Of a stretch of 64,000 bases of DNA, positions 10,298-21,608 are shown piece after piece. Source of the DNA: Alphaproteobacteria bacterium. Its GTDB lineage: Bacteria > Pseudomonadota > Alphaproteobacteria > Micavibrionales > Micavibrionaceae. Where the stretch lies: the NCBI GenBank assembly GCA_018000295.1, contig JAGNKE010000005.1, positions 1 through 64,000 on the forward strand. Reading direction: 5' to 3'. The notes under the pieces are model-generated. The model saw only the letters and a list, made by a program, of their open reading frames with translations. It did not search any database and was not told the origin of the DNA. Position numbers and translations under genes: made by a program. Every line of letters starts with the position of its first letter. Within the stretch, counting starts at the first letter, position 1.

Positions 10298-11512
10298 CTA
10301 ATGGGGAAGCAAGTCCGGAGCAGGAACCAGATGGTTTTCATCCCTGATCCGTTCAAGAGTATGCATCAGCGCCTCCTTGCGCTCCTCGCGTAACTCCCGC
10401 GCATCCCGCCCGTCAAGCGTTTCGCCGATATAGTCAAAATATGGCGAAAGTTCGCGCAGTTGCTGAGCCTCCGTCTTATCGGAAATATTGCTGGTCACAA
10501 CGTTGAAGGGGGTATTTTCAACATACCCGAGCATAATCTGGCGCGGGTTACCCATCGCATCAGGAGGTGTATTAGCCTCTCTATCGGCACCAGACCCGTA
10601 GAAAGGAACCGGAACGAAGACATGCCCGGATTGTTCCGCAAACAGCCAGCTTAAACCATGCTCGTAAGGGCTGGGTTCAGGCAGAAGCGCATGATTTCCG
10701 GTTATATGCGCCCTCCCGGCCTGAAGAAATAGAATCTGAATATCCGGGTTGCTGTCCAGAATATCCTCGGCCTCGTGAAGCATATAAAGATTCCGTGCTA
10801 GCATCCCGAACTGGTGCAGCGCATTGACAGAGGGATAGCCGATTTCGCCCGGCTTGATATGTAAGAAATAAGCCGCCTCGGCAATCGCGGCGGCGGCCTT
10901 GGGATCATCCGCAAGCAAATGCTGAGCCGTCCGGTCATCCGTGATATATTGAGACCAATCCCTCGGGGCATCCGCACAGAACACTGGAATTCCATGATTG
11001 TCGAGATATTGGTGCAAAGCCGTCCGGCTCAGCCGCGCATTGTTGCTTCGAATGGGTGTCGTATCAGCAGACAGCTTTTCCCGCAAACGCTCGTTCCCGG
11101 GAAGACGGAGAAAGGATTGTAGGCCGGCCTTATCGGTAGTCCCGACCTTCATTTCGTCGTCAATATGCAGATCGATGTTGTTCGGCGGCCACTCCACAGC
11201 AAACGCGCACGAAACGCCGTTAACCACCATCTTATGGACGACATCGTGTTCAAGCACGATATGGGCGCCATTCTCGTGCAATTCACCGAACCCCACGACA
11301 AGCTTCTGTCCGGATCGAGCCGTATCAAGGCGGGTCAAAATTTCCTGCGAAACCAGTTCGCCGTTAAGCCTTATGGAATCGATAAGATAGGGCGTCGTAT
11401 ACAACGAAGGAGTATGCTGATAACTGAAGCTGTACGATGTGAACTGCGGATTGACAGATTGCACCTGCTCAACCTGCCCGCTACCTCTGGATTTGTCCGC
11501 AGGCTCGTCCAT
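10298..11512 (-). CDS. EreA/ChaN/TraB-like protein of unknown function
   Basis: A 404-aa protein without a signal peptide. It contains GFGELHENGAH (GELHE at residues 76-80), a following acidic VEWPP (Glu107), and GRAHITGNH (GRAH at 266-269). The combination of an early GExH and a late GxxH motif is typical of the EreA/ChaN/TraB-Tiki superfamily, whose members include erythromycin esterases, haem-binding lipoproteins and proteases. The assignment is by motif only and the substrate is unknown. The start at 11512 has GAGG 7 nt upstream. Confidence 0.55.
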   Translation of the reverse strand: MDEPADKSRGSGQVEQVQSVNPQFTSYSFSYQHTPSLYTTPYLIDSIRLNGELVSQEILTRLDTARSGQKLVVGFGELHENGAHIVLEHDVVHKMVVNGVSCAFAVEWPPNNIDLHIDDEMKVGTTDKAGLQSFLRLPGNERLREKLSADTTPIRSNNARLSRTALHQYLDNHGIPVFCADAPRDWSQYITDDRTAQHLLADDPKAAAAIAEAAYFLHIKPGEIGYPSVNALHQFGMLARNLYMLHEAEDILDSNPDIQILFLQAGRAHITGNHALLPEPSPYEHGLSWLFAEQSGHVFVPVPFYGSGADREANTPPDAMGNPRQIMLGYVENTPFNVVTSNISDKTEAQQLRELSPYFDYIGETLDGRDARELREERKEALMHTLERIRDENHLVPAPDLLPH

Positions 11513-11604: not shown

Positions 11605-12309
11605 CTAATCTTCCTGGATATACGTAGCTTCGGGAAATCTCACGCTCTGCACGAAAGCCGAGGATGTTCCGTCATCTTTGGGTTTTGTCGTATCGAACTC
11701 GAATGCGATCCCCGAAAGCGGCGGCGGCTCGACCCCGAAGATATCCTTGAAGGTTTTCTTGAGATTCAGCCGCGTGGTCACCACCTCCCCCGGCTGGGGG
11801 TGCGCGGCGCAGATAAACCGCCCGCCCTTGTGATAAAACCGCCCCTTGAGCGGAGCCCCAATGGGGTCGTTCTCACACAGATGCAGGGCGATAAAGTACG
11901 GGCTGTCCGGCACGATGGCCGAACCGCTGTCGATCATCTCTTTGCCGAAAAAAGCATAGAACATAATCGCCTCGTTCCGCCGCCCGTTCTGATAAGACGC
12001 CCCCGCCGGAAACTTGTTCACCCCCCACACGATCTCCACATCCTGATCGCCCGTCAGCTTACCTTTCTTCAGTGCGATGATCGACTGCGCGGGCTTCAGC
12101 GCCTCAATCGTCAGCCCCTGATCGGTCAGCGAAATTTTTGTCTTCTTCCGGTTGTCAGCAGAGCGCTCCAGCATGAAATTCCGCTCCGCCAGCCACGCAT
12201 AGGCGTCCTGCCCGCTGAACTTGCGGAAATCGACCTCAGCCTTGTCGGCGAAGGCTGCAGTTACAAAACTAATAGAAAAAAAAAACAACAGGCCAAAACA
12301 GCGTTTCAT
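11605..12309 (-). CDS. DUF3047-type secreted protein
   Basis: A 234-aa protein with a signal peptide (MKRCFGLLFFFSISFVTAAFA, cleavage before DKAEVDF). The mature part has the DUF3047 pattern: an early WxxxxF region, a central VWGVNKFPAGASYQNGRRNE, and a final SGIAFEFDTTKPKDDGTS motif typical of this beta-sandwich family of periplasmic proteins. No activity is known. AAGGA lies 6 nt before the ATG. It follows the small ORF ending at 12340 on the same strand. Confidence 0.72.
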   Translation of the reverse strand: MKRCFGLLFFFSISFVTAAFADKAEVDFRKFSGQDAYAWLAERNFMLERSADNRKKTKISLTDQGLTIEALKPAQSIIALKKGKLTGDQDVEIVWGVNKFPAGASYQNGRRNEAIMFYAFFGKEMIDSGSAIVPDSPYFIALHLCENDPIGAPLKGRFYHKGGRFICAAHPQPGEVVTTRLNLKKTFKDIFGVEPPPLSGIAFEFDTTKPKDDGTSSAFVQSVRFPEATYIQED

Positions 12310-12339: not shown

Positions 12340-12576
12340 CTACTCCTCCCCCTTCTTCCCCTCATAATCAGAGCGTATTGTCCCAAGTTTGCGCGAACGC
12401 GCTTGTTCCTCTTTCAGGCGCTGCTTCTCCTCCGCCCTCTCGACCGCTGCGGACCACTCGTCCTCGGAAAAATCCGGCATCCTGTCCGTCTTCTCCGGTG
12501 ATGATTCCTTCCCAGGAGCCAGGCTCCGCTTCATGGTTGACGACAATTTTTTGCCATCGTCTGAAGACTCCGTCAT
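12340..12576 (-). CDS. Small charged protein overlapping the zeta-kinase gene
   Basis: A 78-aa highly charged, probably helical and partly disordered protein (MTESSDDGKKLS..., with DFSEDEWSAAVERAEEKQRL in the middle). It lies in another frame and overlaps the last 209 nt of the zeta-kinase fusion gene. Support for translation: GAGAGG sits 9 nt before the ATG at 12576, and the composition is unlike a random frame. An in-frame extension to 12621 exists but has poorer context. It could be an antitoxin partner, an unrelated small protein, or the sign of a frameshift in the upstream gene. Function unknown. Confidence 0.5.
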   Translation of the reverse strand: MTESSDDGKKLSSTMKRSLAPGKESSPEKTDRMPDFSEDEWSAAVERAEEKQRLKEEQARSRKLGTIRSDYEGKKGEE

Positions 12577-14383
12577 AGGCATCGACCTCTCTTTCAAATG
12601 TTCCGCCCTCGGGCTGCTCAAATTTTAATGTCACAGGCGCACCGACCGTCATCACCGGCTGCCCCTGCGAATCCAAAGTATATTCAGCGGCCTTCACCAG
12701 CCGCTCCTTCGTATAGCGCGTCCATTCCTGCGCGTTGGCGGGCTTGACCCGGTGAAAAAGCATCGCATGGTCGAAAAGCCCCCGGCTCATCAGATCGTCC
12801 CAGTTCCGGGCGAAATCCTTCACCATCTGCACGGAAATAGGCGTCAGCGCCCCCAGCTGGTTGTTTTCCGTCCGGTGGCGCCGCATCGTATCCTCGTCCA
12901 GAAACAGCCCGGTCGCATAGGCCTTGTATCCCGCCTCATGGGTCTCGTTGGCAAGGCTCTCAATCCATTCCGGATCCTGAAGATGATCCTGCAAAACCAC
13001 CGAATACTTGTTCTCCACCGCCCAGTGGACCAATCTGTTAACCGCCTGATGGTAATCACCGACATGCTCCGGCAGAAGCTCGGGGTGAAAATGGCGGATT
13101 CGGTCATCGTCCGTGAAACATTCGGCGATCATATCATGCCCGATGAAGAGAGTGTTTTTCGGGAAAAACCCCTTGCGCTCCATCAGATCGACCATGGCGC
13201 TCTTCCCGACGGCCGCCCCTCCGGCGGAAATAAAAAACACGGGCGGCGCACTGGGATCGGTATTGGCGTTGCGCTCTCCGGCATGGGGCTGCGAAATCAT
13301 AATCAGCTCGGTGAACTGGTTGATCCGCATCTCGTCATAGAACTGCTCGACGGTAATCGCAGTGCGGTCGCCAAGCTCCAGACTGTCGCGCCCGTCATCC
13401 TCCATGAAGGCGGACGCCCCGAGTTCATCTTTAAGATCATTGTAAAATTTCTCAGCTTTGGGATCGGTGCGGTCCACAAACAGGCCCGCCAGAGTAATCA
13501 ACTCACGGTTGGTCAGACTGTCATAAGACATCCCCGAAAGCTCCAGCCCCTGATTGAGCTTGAGCATCATATCGGGAAGAGCTTGCGTCGTCCCCACAAT
13601 GTGCCTGTTATGCCACAACGCCCGCGAAATGACCGTCCGCACATCCGCCTTGGGCTCAAGACTTAAGGATTCAGACAAAGCCCCGAAAGCCGCAATACCG
13701 ACCACCTTAACCCCGGCGTGCTGCGCGGCATCGAGCTGGTTTTTCAGCGACGCGCCGGTCTGCACATGGTCATCAGCCAGCAGGACAAAATCTCCCGCCT
13801 TGAATCGTGAGAAATTATAGATGTTCTGGCGGCTGAACCGCTCGTAGGTAGTGGCTTCCCGCCGCGGCAGCCTTTGGTCGCTGTCCGCACGGAGCAAACG
13901 GTGCTGGTCATCAGACACGAACCGGATATTTTCGCCCCTTTGCCGCGCAAGCTCTGTCAACACCTCTGCCAGTTCCAGTGAATAGGCTGTAGCCAGTGCA
14001 TTTTTACTTGTTTTTCCCAACACCGTCGGTTCATCGGCTTTATAGTCCCGGACGATGGTGGGAACATAAACGGTCAGATCAGTTTGCCCAGAAATCCCGC
14101 CGTCCGTCATATTTCTTTTGACGCTTTCATAAACTTGCTCCGCATGAACGGAAGGCCTGCCGTCCGCCCACAAAGCCTTCGAAGCCAGTTCGAGAGCCGC
14201 TTCCGCAGCCTCCTCGGGATCGGTCACGCCCTTACCCTTGGCGATTAGACGCCGCGCATGAAAAGCCTCCGCAGCCCCCTCTTCGCTATAAACCTCGGAA
14301 AAATTCATATAAGCCGGAACGATTTCAGGAACAGACAAACTGTCTTGCCAGGGAATGCGCTGCGGAATTTTAGGACTGGTCAT
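12368..14383 (-). CDS. Phosphoribosyltransferase-like / zeta-toxin kinase fusion protein
   Basis: A 671-aa protein with two enzymatic modules. The N-terminal half contains FVLLADDHVQTGASL (residues 199-213), the PRPP-binding pattern of type I phosphoribosyltransferases, followed by AGVKVVGIAAFG. The C-terminal half contains a Walker A motif, SAGGAAVGKS (386-395), a following HDMIAE region and FLDEDTMRRHRTENN, resembling zeta toxin/PezT kinases, which phosphorylate UDP-N-acetylglucosamine. Free zeta toxins are about 250-290 aa, so this is a large fusion. No classical epsilon-type antitoxin is seen. The final ~70 residues overlap another ORF. No strong ribosome binding site precedes the ATG at 14383. 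Confidence 0.72.
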   Translation of the reverse strand: MTSPKIPQRIPWQDSLSVPEIVPAYMNFSEVYSEEGAAEAFHARRLIAKGKGVTDPEEAAEAALELASKALWADGRPSVHAEQVYESVKRNMTDGGISGQTDLTVYVPTIVRDYKADEPTVLGKTSKNALATAYSLELAEVLTELARQRGENIRFVSDDQHRLLRADSDQRLPRREATTYERFSRQNIYNFSRFKAGDFVLLADDHVQTGASLKNQLDAAQHAGVKVVGIAAFGALSESLSLEPKADVRTVISRALWHNRHIVGTTQALPDMMLKLNQGLELSGMSYDSLTNRELITLAGLFVDRTDPKAEKFYNDLKDELGASAFMEDDGRDSLELGDRTAITVEQFYDEMRINQFTELIMISQPHAGERNANTDPSAPPVFFISAGGAAVGKSAMVDLMERKGFFPKNTLFIGHDMIAECFTDDDRIRHFHPELLPEHVGDYHQAVNRLVHWAVENKYSVVLQDHLQDPEWIESLANETHEAGYKAYATGLFLDEDTMRRHRTENNQLGALTPISVQMVKDFARNWDDLMSRGLFDHAMLFHRVKPANAQEWTRYTKERLVKAAEYTLDSQGQPVMTVGAPVTLKFEQPEGGTFEREVDAYDGVFRRWQKIVVNHEAEPGSWEGIITGEDGQDAGFFRGRVVRSGREGGGEAAPERGTSAFAQTWDNTL

Positions 14384-14519: not shown

Positions 14520-14918
14520 CTAGTGATTTACTGGCTCTCTGTACCACGGATTCTCTTTCTTTTTAGCCTGCTTGGCCTCATAGGCCTTCTTATCGTTGGC
14601 CAAGGCCGATTTCCGCGCACTCATGTAATCCTGATGAATCATGTTCCACAGATCAAAATCCCCATGCCGTGCGGCTTTCTTGAGCTTGGGTAGATAGTCC
14701 CGATCCACCCTCTTCGCGCTTTGCGCGTGGTTAGCCCTGTTTTCCTTTCGGACCTGATTCTCAAGATACTCCGTCCGGTCACAAAGATAACGGATATCCC
14801 GCTCGATCTGCTCCTTTTTGATCTCGGCAAGTCTCTCCTTATCGATCTTATGGGCGCTCACAGGCAGGGTAAAAACGCATAAAAAAGACAATAATACAAA
14901 AGCCATAATATGTTTCAT
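14520..14918 (-). CDS. Secreted charged helical protein, unknown
   Basis: A 132-aa protein. The frame reaches 15035, but the ATG at 14918 has GAGGA 7 nt upstream and starts a proper signal peptide (MKHIMAFVLLSFLCVFTLPVSA). The mature part is rich in K, E, R and A and likely alpha-helical, with LAEIKKEQIERDIRYLCDR, and ends in KKKENPWYREPVNH. I do not recognise the family. Confidence 0.7.
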   Translation of the reverse strand: MKHIMAFVLLSFLCVFTLPVSAHKIDKERLAEIKKEQIERDIRYLCDRTEYLENQVRKENRANHAQSAKRVDRDYLPKLKKAARHGDFDLWNMIHQDYMSARKSALANDKKAYEAKQAKKKENPWYREPVNH

Positions 14919-15178
14919 CTTAAAATCCTCATATAAATCCGCGAACATTATACGTTCCTGAAAGAAATACCATTCGCAGGAAACGAATACAAATTTGCTC
15001 TTGAGCATGAAGAAGGTATTTAAAACCCGCTCCATAGCCAGAACTCAGGCGGCAAATCACGTAACATCCCTATAAAAACTACTTTAATTTCTGCCCCTGT
15101 GTTATAGTAACGGCTAGCACCTGCCTTCGATTTTCTTTTCTTTAACACACGCTGGTTGTCGCGTGCTTTAGGTATCAT

Positions 15179-18266: not shown

Positions 18267-21200
18267 ATGGAAAAGAGTAACAGCGTAAACAGCAGTGGCG
18301 TTGAAAAACCTGATACGGATGAAAAACCCCAATCAGCAGAAGAACCGATTATTGTCTCGCAGGAAACACAAGACCATCAGGATCAAGACCCTGAAGCGGA
18401 AATCCGTCTGGCCGACATCTCTCACACAATCCTTTTGGAGTCTCTGCCGGAGGAACAAATCAAGGAGATCGAAGTCGTCCTGAACGATCTCGGCACCACC
18501 CTCGGCGAAGAAGAAATCGAACACCAGAAAAAATTAAGCAAAAAGAAAATAGAAACGCAGGAACAGAACACGGATATCCAGCAGCAGGGCGATCTTACAG
18601 CCGTCAATAACGGCTCCGATGGATCGCCTTCCTCAGACCTAGACCTGAACGCCTTCGGTGCAACAGAAAAATTGGAGGCCAGCGACAAAAACCTCAGAGG
18701 CTTCTTCGGGCAAGACCTGAGCACGACAGGAACCCTTGAAAGCACGGAAATCTCAGACCAAAATACTTCGGGAACGGCACCATCGGGAACAACCGCGCTC
18801 CGCCCCATTCTATTAGAATCAGAAGAACAACCGGAACCGAAGTTCGCCCCCGTGGCCTTGGATGACTCGGCCGCCACCAATCAGGATTCAGGCACCGGAA
18901 ATATCTATGCGGCGCTTCTCGCCAACGACACGGACGCAAACGCCGGAGATACCCTGTCGGTCTTCGCAGTAGACACAACAGGAACGCTGGGATCTGTAAT
19001 CTTCGATAGCTTGACCCAATCGGTTGTCTACAGCACCGGCAACGCCTTCGATTATCTTTCTGCCGCAGCCACCGCCACAGACACCTTCACCTACGCTGTT
19101 TCCGACGACCACGGAACAACGGACACCGCAACCGTAACAGTCACGGTCACAGGAATAAACGATCCGGTCACAGGCAACGACGACACCGCAGGCACCAATC
19201 AGGACTCAAATACTGGAAACCTCTATGCCGCCCTTCTGGCCAACGATACCGACATCGACACAGCCGATACACTTTCGATTATCAGCATCGACACCATAGG
19301 AACCGTGGGTCTGGTAGTATTCGACAGCTTCACCCAATCAGTCGTTTACAGCACCGGAAACGCCTTTGATTCCCTGGCCGCAGGAGCCACGGCGGCGGAC
19401 ACCTTCGCCTACACCGTGTCTGATGGCAACGGCGCAACAGACACCGCAACCGTAACAGTCACGGTCACAGGCGTAAACGACGCCCCCGTAGCAACGGATG
19501 ACGGCCTCTACGGCGAAACCGTGGAAGGCGGAAGCACAGTCCTTATTACGGTCGCCGACCTCCTGCTCAACGATACCGATGCTGACACCGGAGACACAAA
19601 AACAATCACCTCCATGTCCTTAGGCACAGGACAGGGAGCAATCGTAAACAACGGCAACGGAACATGGACCTATACACCCCCTGCAGACAGCTTGGCGTTT
19701 TCGGGAATGGCGACAATAACCTATACGCTGCAGGACACTTTGGGACTGACCGATACGGCAACACTCAATATTCGTGTGTTCAACCAGATCAGCGGGACAA
19801 GCGGAGCGAATACCTTAACCCCGGCAGACATGAATACCCCCCATAAATTTTTAGGACTGGGCGGAAACGACACTATCACCGGCTCCAACACAAGGGACAT
19901 TCTCGATGGCGGCAACGGTAACGATACCCTGAACGCAGGAGACGGGGATGACGACTTTCTATTCTCGGGATCCTCCGGCACGGACTCCGCGAACGGCGGC
20001 AACGGTTACGACCGGATGCTCGGCTCAAGTGGCAACGACACCATCATCCTGAGCGCAGTATCAGGAATCGACTATATTGATCTCGGCACAGGCACAAACA
20101 TTATTCAAGCCAATAATTATGCCACCCTTGATTTTTCAAATTTGACCGCGGGTGTAGACCTCCTGAACGTAAGCTACTTCACGGATTACGATTATAACGA
20201 AACCATTATCGGTACGATGGGAGACGATGTCTTCCTGAGACAATCAGGCTGGTTTCAGGACACATTCAGAGGCGGCAACGGCAACGACACGTTTCTGGTC
20301 AACGGCTTTGCACCGGAGTATGACACCTTTGACGGAGGCAACGGCTACGATCAAATTTTGGGAACGGTCGGCAATGACAGCCTGCTGGTGAACATCATAA
20401 GCGTCGAATACATAGATTTGGGTACTGGCACAAACGTCATAGCGGCCGTTTTGGGGACAACACTTGACCTCTCTGCTCTTACCAACGGAATAAATCTACT
20501 GGGAGTGAGCTACATTACGGATGACGTAAACGCCGAAACACTGATCGGAACCTCCGGGGCAGATACGCTCCAGATAAGCGTCGATTGGTTCACGGATACC
20601 TTCAACGGCGGCGACGGCGACGACACGTTCACCTTCAGCGGCAATCTTCTCGGCAACGACAATATCATCGGCGGCAACGGCTACGACAGTTTGATTGGGT
20701 CGGCCGGAAACGACACTCTGGCCCCGATGGCGATGACCGGAATCGAGTATATCGACCTCGGAGCAGGCACCAACTCCTTGCAGGCCTATTATGGCACAAC
20801 GCTCAACTTGTCCGGCTTCACCAATGGCGTAAACTTGCTGGGCCTGAGCTATATTACAGACAATGGAGCCGGTGAAACACTGATCGGAACCTCCGGCGCC
20901 GATACGCTCCAGATAAGCGTCGATTGGTTCACGGATACCTTCAACGGCGGCGACGGCGACGACACGTTCACCTTCAGCGGAAACCTTCTCGGCAACGACA
21001 ATATCATCGGCGGCAACGGCTACGACAGTTTGATTGGGTCGGCCGGAAACGACACTCTGGCCCCGATGGCGATGACCGGAATCGAATTCATCGACCTCTG
21101 CGCAGGCACCAACTCCTTGCAGGCCTATTATGGCGCAACGCTTGATCTGTCCTCCTTTACCCAAAGCACTGACTTCTTGGGCGTAACCTACATTATGGAT

Positions 21201-21608
21201 AATATCAACGGCGAAACCATTTTCGGAACGGACCAGAACGACACATTCCTTCTGGGGTCAGACGTATGGGTAGATACGCTATACGGCAACAACGGATCCG
21301 ACACCTTTATGATAACCGCAACTCGCAGTGAACAAGACACACTGGCAGATTTTGACGTCCTCGAAGGCGATGTTATCGATATTTCTCAGGTTCTGAGCTA
21401 CAACTCGGCCTTGGGAGATATAATCAGCGACTTCATTCAATTCATCGACTCCGATGGAAACCCTGCGGACGGCTCAGGAACAGTAACCATAAGAGTGGAC
21501 CCGAACGGAACAGCCGGAGGAGCTAGCTTTACCAGCTACTTCACCTTCGCCGACCAGAATATGACAATGATCGATATGATAAATAATGCAAACCTGATCG
21601 TAGAGTAA
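18267..21608 (+). CDS. Large secreted RTX/Ig-like repeat adhesin
   Basis: A 1113-aa acidic protein without an N-terminal signal peptide. Residues 1-190 are charged and low in hydrophobics. Then come three cadherin/VCBS-like domains (about 194-293, 294-400, 401-504); the first two share the ALLANDTD motif and end in TATVTVTVTG. From about 505 to 1010 there are at least four ~110-aa units, each with calcium-binding GGNGNDT or GGDGDDT nonapeptides and a YIDLGTGTN strand motif. The last ~90 residues end in a hydrophobic-acidic tail (MIDMINNANLIVE), typical of type I secretion signals. Likely a cell-surface or extracellular adhesin. No type I secretion genes are in the window. Confidence 0.85.
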   Translation: MEKSNSVNSSGVEKPDTDEKPQSAEEPIIVSQETQDHQDQDPEAEIRLADISHTILLESLPEEQIKEIEVVLNDLGTTLGEEEIEHQKKLSKKKIETQEQNTDIQQQGDLTAVNNGSDGSPSSDLDLNAFGATEKLEASDKNLRGFFGQDLSTTGTLESTEISDQNTSGTAPSGTTALRPILLESEEQPEPKFAPVALDDSAATNQDSGTGNIYAALLANDTDANAGDTLSVFAVDTTGTLGSVIFDSLTQSVVYSTGNAFDYLSAAATATDTFTYAVSDDHGTTDTATVTVTVTGINDPVTGNDDTAGTNQDSNTGNLYAALLANDTDIDTADTLSIISIDTIGTVGLVVFDSFTQSVVYSTGNAFDSLAAGATAADTFAYTVSDGNGATDTATVTVTVTGVNDAPVATDDGLYGETVEGGSTVLITVADLLLNDTDADTGDTKTITSMSLGTGQGAIVNNGNGTWTYTPPADSLAFSGMATITYTLQDTLGLTDTATLNIRVFNQISGTSGANTLTPADMNTPHKFLGLGGNDTITGSNTRDILDGGNGNDTLNAGDGDDDFLFSGSSGTDSANGGNGYDRMLGSSGNDTIILSAVSGIDYIDLGTGTNIIQANNYATLDFSNLTAGVDLLNVSYFTDYDYNETIIGTMGDDVFLRQSGWFQDTFRGGNGNDTFLVNGFAPEYDTFDGGNGYDQILGTVGNDSLLVNIISVEYIDLGTGTNVIAAVLGTTLDLSALTNGINLLGVSYITDDVNAETLIGTSGADTLQISVDWFTDTFNGGDGDDTFTFSGNLLGNDNIIGGNGYDSLIGSAGNDTLAPMAMTGIEYIDLGAGTNSLQAYYGTTLNLSGFTNGVNLLGLSYITDNGAGETLIGTSGADTLQISVDWFTDTFNGGDGDDTFTFSGNLLGNDNIIGGNGYDSLIGSAGNDTLAPMAMTGIEFIDLCAGTNSLQAYYGATLDLSSFTQSTDFLGVTYIMDNINGETIFGTDQNDTFLLGSDVWVDTLYGNNGSDTFMITATRSEQDTLADFDVLEGDVIDISQVLSYNSALGDIISDFIQFIDSDGNPADGSGTVTIRVDPNGTAGGASFTSYFTFADQNMTMIDMINNANLIVE
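20535..21140 (+). repeat. Near-identical tandem 339-bp repeats inside the adhesin gene
   Basis: The segment 20535-20873 recurs from 20874 to about 21140 with offset 339 nt (113 codons) and only scattered substitutions, many silent. Each copy encodes GTSGADTLQISVDWF, GGDGDDTFTFSGN and AGTNSLQAYYG. The identity is far higher than between the other units of the gene, so this duplication is recent or kept alike by recombination. Confidence 0.9.

What the first reader, a model, noticed from the sequence alone, without database searches (positions are those of the whole stretch)
12368..14383. Fusion of a PRPP-type phosphoribosyltransferase domain to a zeta-toxin-like kinase
One 671-aa chain holds ADDHVQTGASL (PRPP loop) and AGGAAVGKS plus downstream zeta-like motifs. 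Zeta toxins normally act alone beside an epsilon antitoxin, on UDP-GlcNAc. A linked phosphoribosyltransferase points to a nucleotide or sugar-nucleotide chemistry not described for zeta toxins, perhaps a defence or growth-control enzyme.
Basis: partly seen in the sequence, partly recalled or inferred. Interest (0 to 1): 0.65.

Follow-up and report, generated by a model that had tools for sequence, protein, structure and literature searches.

The report
Phosphoribosyltransferase–kinase fusion protein
A 671-residue bacterial protein joins a sugar-phosphate-transferring enzyme domain, otherwise known from the plant-pathogen injected protein XopC, to a zeta-like kinase domain; relatives carry the same two kinds of domain in reverse order, which suggests that the pair works together on a nucleotide-like small molecule whose identity is unknown.

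Summary
The gene is real: one intact 671-aa reading frame, minus strand, 12368-14383. The kinase half passes Pfam's Zeta_toxin cut-off, but FtsY proteins score almost as high, so 'zeta/PNK-like P-loop kinase' is safe and 'zeta toxin' is not. It keeps the Walker A lysine and an aspartate, lacks a lid arginine, and has no antitoxin gene beside it. The first half is a divergent type I phosphoribosyltransferase (PRT), homologous to the PRT domain of XopC/Rsp1239 type III effectors; two low-confidence models match mostly PRTs. Two same-genus genomes and one other alphaproteobacterial family carry 895-914 aa proteins with these domain kinds in the opposite order, with a kinase not detectably related to this one, which points to independent pairing of the same functions. 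Another relative has the PRT as a separate gene beside a HAD-like gene, XopC's domain partner. The gene is accessory: its site is empty in a same-genus genome. VirB4, TssC and a dedicated T3SS ATPase were not found, so an injected effector is unlikely. Best reading: a cytosolic two-step enzyme that makes and phosphorylates a ribosylated small molecule; substrate unknown.

The parts
12368..14383 (-). 671-aa PRT-kinase fusion gene (P0001)
   Evidence: single intact ORF; only copy in the genome
13394..14278 (-). residues 36-330: XopC-type phosphoribosyltransferase region
   Evidence: NCBIfam XopC model E=5e-13 (residues 159-331); tblastn to XopC, residues 104-333, 26.7%, E=2e-6; 26% identity to P0002 C-terminal region, E=2e-20; Foldseek matches mostly PRTs
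13751..13777 (-). PRPP-loop-like motif ADDHVQTGA (residues 203-211); A203, D204, H206 and Q208 invariant among the five aligned proteins
   Evidence: alignments
12689..13270 (-). residues 372-565: zeta/PNK-like P-loop kinase region
   Evidence: Pfam Zeta_toxin residues 372-490, 34.6 bits against cut-off 22.3; phmmer ranks zeta-type proteins of the order above FtsY
13199..13222 (-). Walker A GGAAVGKS (residues 388-395)
   Evidence: translation; alignment with small zeta-type proteins
13133..13135 (-). Asp417, aligned with the putative catalytic Asp of zeta-type kinases
   Evidence: alignment
12449..12616 (-). residues 590-645: C-terminal tail predicted as four beta strands, no known family
   Evidence: low-confidence model; no Pfam match
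11605..12309 (-). downstream same-strand gene with signal-peptide-like start; left border of the site that is empty in G002
   Evidence: orthologue 78-84% identical in G002 and G001
14520..15035 (-). upstream same-strand gene; right border of the site that is empty in G002
   Evidence: orthologue 62% identical in G002, about 73 bp from the other border gene

Best explanation
A soluble cytosolic two-domain enzyme. The XopC-type type I PRT domain (about residues 40-330) transfers phosphoribose from PRPP to an acceptor (or runs the reverse). The P-loop kinase domain of the zeta/PNK class (about residues 372-565) phosphorylates the ribosylated product or its nucleotide relative, as AvrRxo1 does with NAD, so that two steps on one small molecule are coupled in one chain. 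The product would be a modified nucleotide used in stress response or conflict, or as a growth-limiting metabolite. Shown: one chain, homology of each half, retained key residues, the same two domain kinds paired in both orders, accessory position, no partner antitoxin, and none of the three secretion-system markers tested. Inferred: that both sites are active, that they share a metabolite, and the biological role.
For: PRT: XopC model E=5e-13, and 1.6e-28, 5e-26 and 7.7e-24 for the relatives. The relative's PRT domain matches XopC over 91% of its length, 29.8% identity, E about 1e-23. A profile against the PDB gives adenine PRT first (E=0.0036), 15 of 21 matches being type I PRT-fold proteins. 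Two models of low mean confidence both match mostly PRTs. The acidic PRPP-loop pair is kept. Kinase: Pfam Zeta_toxin 34.6 bits; Walker A and Asp417 kept. Coupling: kinase-then-PRT proteins of 895, at least 839 and 914 aa in two same-genus genomes and another alphaproteobacterial family, with a kinase not detectably related to that of P0001 by profile comparison. A separate PRT gene lies next to a HAD-like gene in G100, and XopC1 itself is listed as PRT plus HAD-like hydrolase (PMC3071791). Accessory: empty site in G002. No VirB4, no TssC, no T3SS ATPase over cut-off.
Against: The generic PRT model is below cut-off (15.4 against 26.3 bits), and the family departs from the textbook PRPP loop (H206, Q208; Thr209 is Ala in the relatives). 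The lid Arg of local zeta proteins is Ala512, and the nearest kinase relative, P0004, has lost the Walker A lysine, so this kinase line tolerates loss of catalysis. Models have mean pLDDT of only 45 and 57. This exact order (PRT then kinase) was found in one genome only.
Confidence: 0.45

Rival explanations
1. The PRT domain is a ligand sensor, not an enzyme: like PurR it binds PRPP, ppGpp or a nucleotide and switches the attached zeta-like kinase on or off, replacing an antitoxin.
For: PRT active-site loop is atypical; PurR, including its ppGpp complex, is among the fold matches; no antitoxin-sized gene is adjacent.
Against: The acidic PRPP-loop pair is conserved in the aligned relatives; the same PRT occurs without a kinase, next to a HAD-like gene, which fits an enzyme at least as well.
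Confidence: 0.2
2. It is a secreted or injected effector, used for predation or on a host, as XopC and AvrRxo1 are in plant pathogens.
For: The closest described relative of the PRT half is the type III effector XopC; zeta-fold AvrRxo1 is also an injected effector (PMC5491322); a relative is named Micavibrio, a genus of predators.
Against: No VirB4, no TssC and no T3SS ATPase over cut-off in a genome rated 100% complete; no signal peptide apparent; domain order and partner differ from XopC.
Confidence: 0.13
3. It is a classical zeta toxin that phosphorylates UDP-GlcNAc, with an added domain.
For: Pfam Zeta_toxin above cut-off; Walker A and Asp present.
Against: Score is close to that of FtsY; a profile of local zeta-type proteins scores it at 13.8 bits, no better than FtsY at 15; lid Arg missing; no epsilon gene.
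Confidence: 0.08
4. One or both domains are catalytically dead and the protein is decaying or only structural.
For: Unusual PRPP loop, missing lid Arg, sole example of its order; nearest kinase relative has no Walker A lysine.
Against: Intact 671-aa frame with normal codon composition; Lys394, Ser395, Asp417 and the acidic PRPP pair all kept.
Confidence: 0.14

Closest known systems
XopC / Rsp1239 family type III effectors (NCBIfam NF041412)
   Same: PRT domain of about 270 residues, E about 1e-13 (P0001) to 1e-28 (relatives) by model and 26.7-29.8% identity by tblastn
   Different: XopC pairs the PRT with a HAD-like domain (PMC3071791) and is injected through a T3SS; here the partner is a P-loop kinase and no T3SS ATPase over cut-off was found. 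The model's cut-off (1000 bits) is far from met.
AvrRxo1 (zeta-fold NAD 3'-kinase, PMC5491322, PMC5087710)
   Same: Zeta/PNK-like P-loop kinase with Walker A and catalytic Asp; shows that such a kinase can act on a nucleotide rather than UDP-GlcNAc
   Different: No PRT domain described; has an antitoxin partner (Arc1) and is an injected effector. Not aligned here.
Zeta / PezT toxins (Pfam PF06414)
   Same: Walker A and catalytic Asp aligned; Pfam cut-off passed
   Different: No lid Arg at the RxTP position, no epsilon/PezA gene, fused PRT domain; score not separable from FtsY
Type I PRTs, e.g. adenine PRT, PurR (PF00156)
   Same: Acidic PRPP-loop pair, strand-loop-helix order, best fold and profile matches
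   Different: Below the Pfam cut-off; own signature AD[DE]H[VI]Q; helical extensions on both sides

Membership tests
Zeta toxin (PF06414) | Pfam curated cut-off | tested here: met
   34.6 bits against 22.3, but FtsY of this genus gets 32.3 and 35.0 bits, so the test does not discriminate
Zeta toxin (PF06414) | Walker A lysine and putative catalytic aspartate | tested here: met
   Lys394 and Asp417 in the alignment with small zeta-type proteins
Zeta toxin (PF06414) | Lid arginine in the RxTP stretch | tested here: not met
   GALTP, Ala512 at the Arg position
Zeta toxin (PF06414) | Adjacent epsilon/PezA antitoxin gene | tested here: not met
   no ORF longer than 42 aa besides the gene itself between 12310 and 14519 in the scan
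Zeta toxin (PF06414) | Phosphorylates UDP-GlcNAc | not testable with these tools
   needs an assay
Type I phosphoribosyltransferase | Pfam PF00156 curated cut-off | tested here: not met
   15.4 bits against 26.3
Type I phosphoribosyltransferase | Acidic pair of the PRPP loop | tested here: met
   D204 and D205 (D then D/E in all aligned relatives)
Type I phosphoribosyltransferase | PRT fold | tested here: inconclusive
   Foldseek matches mostly PRTs from two models, but E about 1e-2 and pLDDT 45 and 57; supported by the PDB profile search
XopC/Rsp1239 effector | Homologous PRT region | tested here: met
   E=5e-13, tblastn E=2e-6
XopC/Rsp1239 effector | Whole-family cut-off and HAD-like second half | tested here: not met
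   48 bits against 1000; second half is a P-loop kinase
XopC/Rsp1239 effector | Encoded with a type III secretion system | tested here: not met
   no T3SS ATPase over cut-off; best match 480 bits against 604.75, flagellar type by inference
Known anti-phage defence system | Match to a PADLOC model | tested here: not met
   no match at E<=1

The most novel reading that the evidence does not exclude
XopC-type PRT domains are one half of a so far undescribed bacterial nucleotide-modifying module, in which the other half is a phosphate-handling enzyme: a zeta/PNK-like kinase (recruited at least twice, in both orders) or a HAD-like phosphatase. The module makes a signalling or toxic nucleotide inside the bacterium, and plant-pathogen XopC is a version of it turned into an injected effector.
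Probability: 0.25. Interest if true: 0.75.

Novelty: new variant of a known kind. Interest (0 to 1): 0.48.

Why it matters
The biochemical activity of the PRT half of XopC-type effectors is, as far as the papers consulted here show, unknown. Bacteria outside the plant pathogens that pair the same domain with a kinase in two different arrangements, or with a neighbouring HAD-like gene, suggest that its product is a phosphorylatable ribosyl compound, and offer non-effector proteins in which to test this. It would also add to the case, begun by AvrRxo1, that zeta-like kinases act on nucleotides other than UDP-GlcNAc.

Tried and rejected
Phage or plasmid origin: no match to phages or viral contigs; plasmid matches only to xopC, none for the kinase half of the relative. 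Known defence system: none. Two genes joined by error: rejected on ORF integrity and codon composition. Direct PDB match of the whole chain: none. Zeta label taken from the Pfam score alone: rejected as non-discriminating after FtsY controls. Common descent of the two kinase halves (P0001 type and P0002 type): not detectable, hhalign probability 0.1%, though from alignments of only 2 and 3 sequences. Full-length model: too poor to interpret for the kinase half. A mixed alignment with kinase fragments misplaced them and was discarded. The pattern scan of genome contigs with P0001 alone found nothing; with the PRT alignment it found three relatives. Literature searches for this domain pair found no relevant paper, in open-access text only.

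Full report
Observation. The window carries one intact 671-aa ORF on the minus strand at 12368-14383. It is the only copy in a 2.68-Mb genome rated 100% complete. Codon-position composition is continuous across the junction and the gene has the G+C of its neighbours, so there is no sign of two genes joined by error.

Organism. Two other same-family genomes (2,458,610 and 2,481,983 bp) have the sizes of Micavibrio aeruginosavorus genomes, from memory. The window is therefore most likely from Micavibrionales (inference).

First half. Generic PRT models see only the PRPP-loop segment (Pfam E=0.012, below cut-off). NCBIfam's XopC/Rsp1239 model matches residues 159-331 at E=5e-13, and tblastn against plasmids finds xopC genes of Xanthomonas over residues 104-333 (26.7%, E=2e-6). 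Same-genus relatives match the XopC model at 1.6e-28 and 5e-26, and one PRT domain alone matches xopC over 91% of its length at about 1e-23. A profile of five relatives against the PDB gives adenine PRT first (E=0.0036), with 15 of 21 listed matches being type I PRT-fold proteins. Two AlphaFold models on shallow alignments are weak (pLDDT 45 and 57), yet Foldseek returns mostly adenine, orotate and related PRTs, PurF, PurR and ComF. The subfamily has its own PRPP-loop signature, AD[DE]H[VI]Q. I call this a divergent type I PRT of the XopC type; the fold is likely, activity untested.

Second half. Pfam Zeta_toxin matches residues 372-490 at 34.6 bits, above cut-off. A control search of the order shows the limit of this: FtsY proteins of the same genus reach 32.3 and 35.0 bits, whereas clear zeta-type proteins of the order reach about 50-123 bits. 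In a direct comparison, the best zeta-type proteins rank above FtsY (phmmer E=2e-4 against 0.8), but a profile of small zeta-type proteins scores P0001 (13.8 bits) no better than FtsY (15). Lys394, Ser395 and Asp417 are kept, while the Arg of the RxTP lid stretch is Ala512. The closest kinase relative, P0004 in the same order, has lost the Walker A lysine. The safe name is zeta/PNK-like P-loop kinase. No antitoxin-like gene is adjacent.

Pairing. Same-genus genomes G002 and G001 lack this gene but carry 895-aa and at least 839-aa proteins (the latter cut by a contig end), with a zeta-like kinase first and the XopC-type PRT last. A third, of 914 aa, lies in another alphaproteobacterial family, there with the kinase match just below the Pfam cut-off. 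The kinases of the two arrangements show no detectable profile similarity, and this genome has no copy of the reverse type. In G100 the PRT is a separate 402-aa gene followed 165 bp on by a HAD-like gene, which mirrors the PRT plus HAD-like make-up reported for XopC1 (PMC3071791). The PRT profile was run over 142 genomes of the order, 385 of the class and 399 of the phylum (overlapping sets); only these and a few weak matches were found, so the group is rare.

Position. In G002 the two genes that flank this one are about 73 bp apart, and the next gene over in the window (10298-11512) is missing too. The gene is accessory, in a variable spot. Whether by gain here or loss there cannot be told from one site.

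Function. The genome shows no VirB4, TssC or T3SS ATPase over cut-off, so injection is unlikely, although other export routes were not tested. Two arrangements of the same pair argue for functional coupling. The most likely mechanism is transfer of phosphoribose and phosphorylation on one small molecule, with a PRT acting as ligand sensor for the kinase as the main rival. AvrRxo1 shows that zeta-fold kinases can act on NAD (PMC5491322, PMC5087710). Substrate and role are unknown; the confidence of 0.45 reflects that.

Noticed in passing
L023:2626-4986 (G265, same class): A type I-G CRISPR protein Csb2 (786 aa, TIGR02165 E=1e-87 in two stretches) has a PRT-like segment (VMVDDFIGQGGT, about residues 250-480) inserted between its parts; assembly error not excluded.
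   Followed up: partly
L068:789-3434 (G131, same order): 881-aa protein that by eye joins a trehalase-like glycosidase to a zeta-like kinase (Pfam Zeta_toxin 51.6 bits).
   Followed up: no
L016:5741-8101 (G100): Stand-alone XopC-type PRT gene followed by a HAD-like gene (328 aa, DYDGT motif).
   Followed up: partly
L007:7501-8436 (G044): Stand-alone zeta-like protein with Gln in place of the Walker A lysine, next to a pyrB-like gene: probably an inactive kinase.
   Followed up: partly
window 10298-11512: 404-aa protein with a weak match to ChaN/Tiki (E=0.03), absent from the corresponding place in G001 and G002.
   Followed up: partly
L017:5315-6262 and L018:4861-5808: 315-aa stand-alone PRT-like protein in two genomes of the size of Micavibrio aeruginosavorus; one tested matches unnamed phage family phrog_22413 (E=3e-5).
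   Followed up: no
window 18267-21608: 1113-aa protein that by eye has cadherin-like and RTX-like repeats.
   Followed up: no
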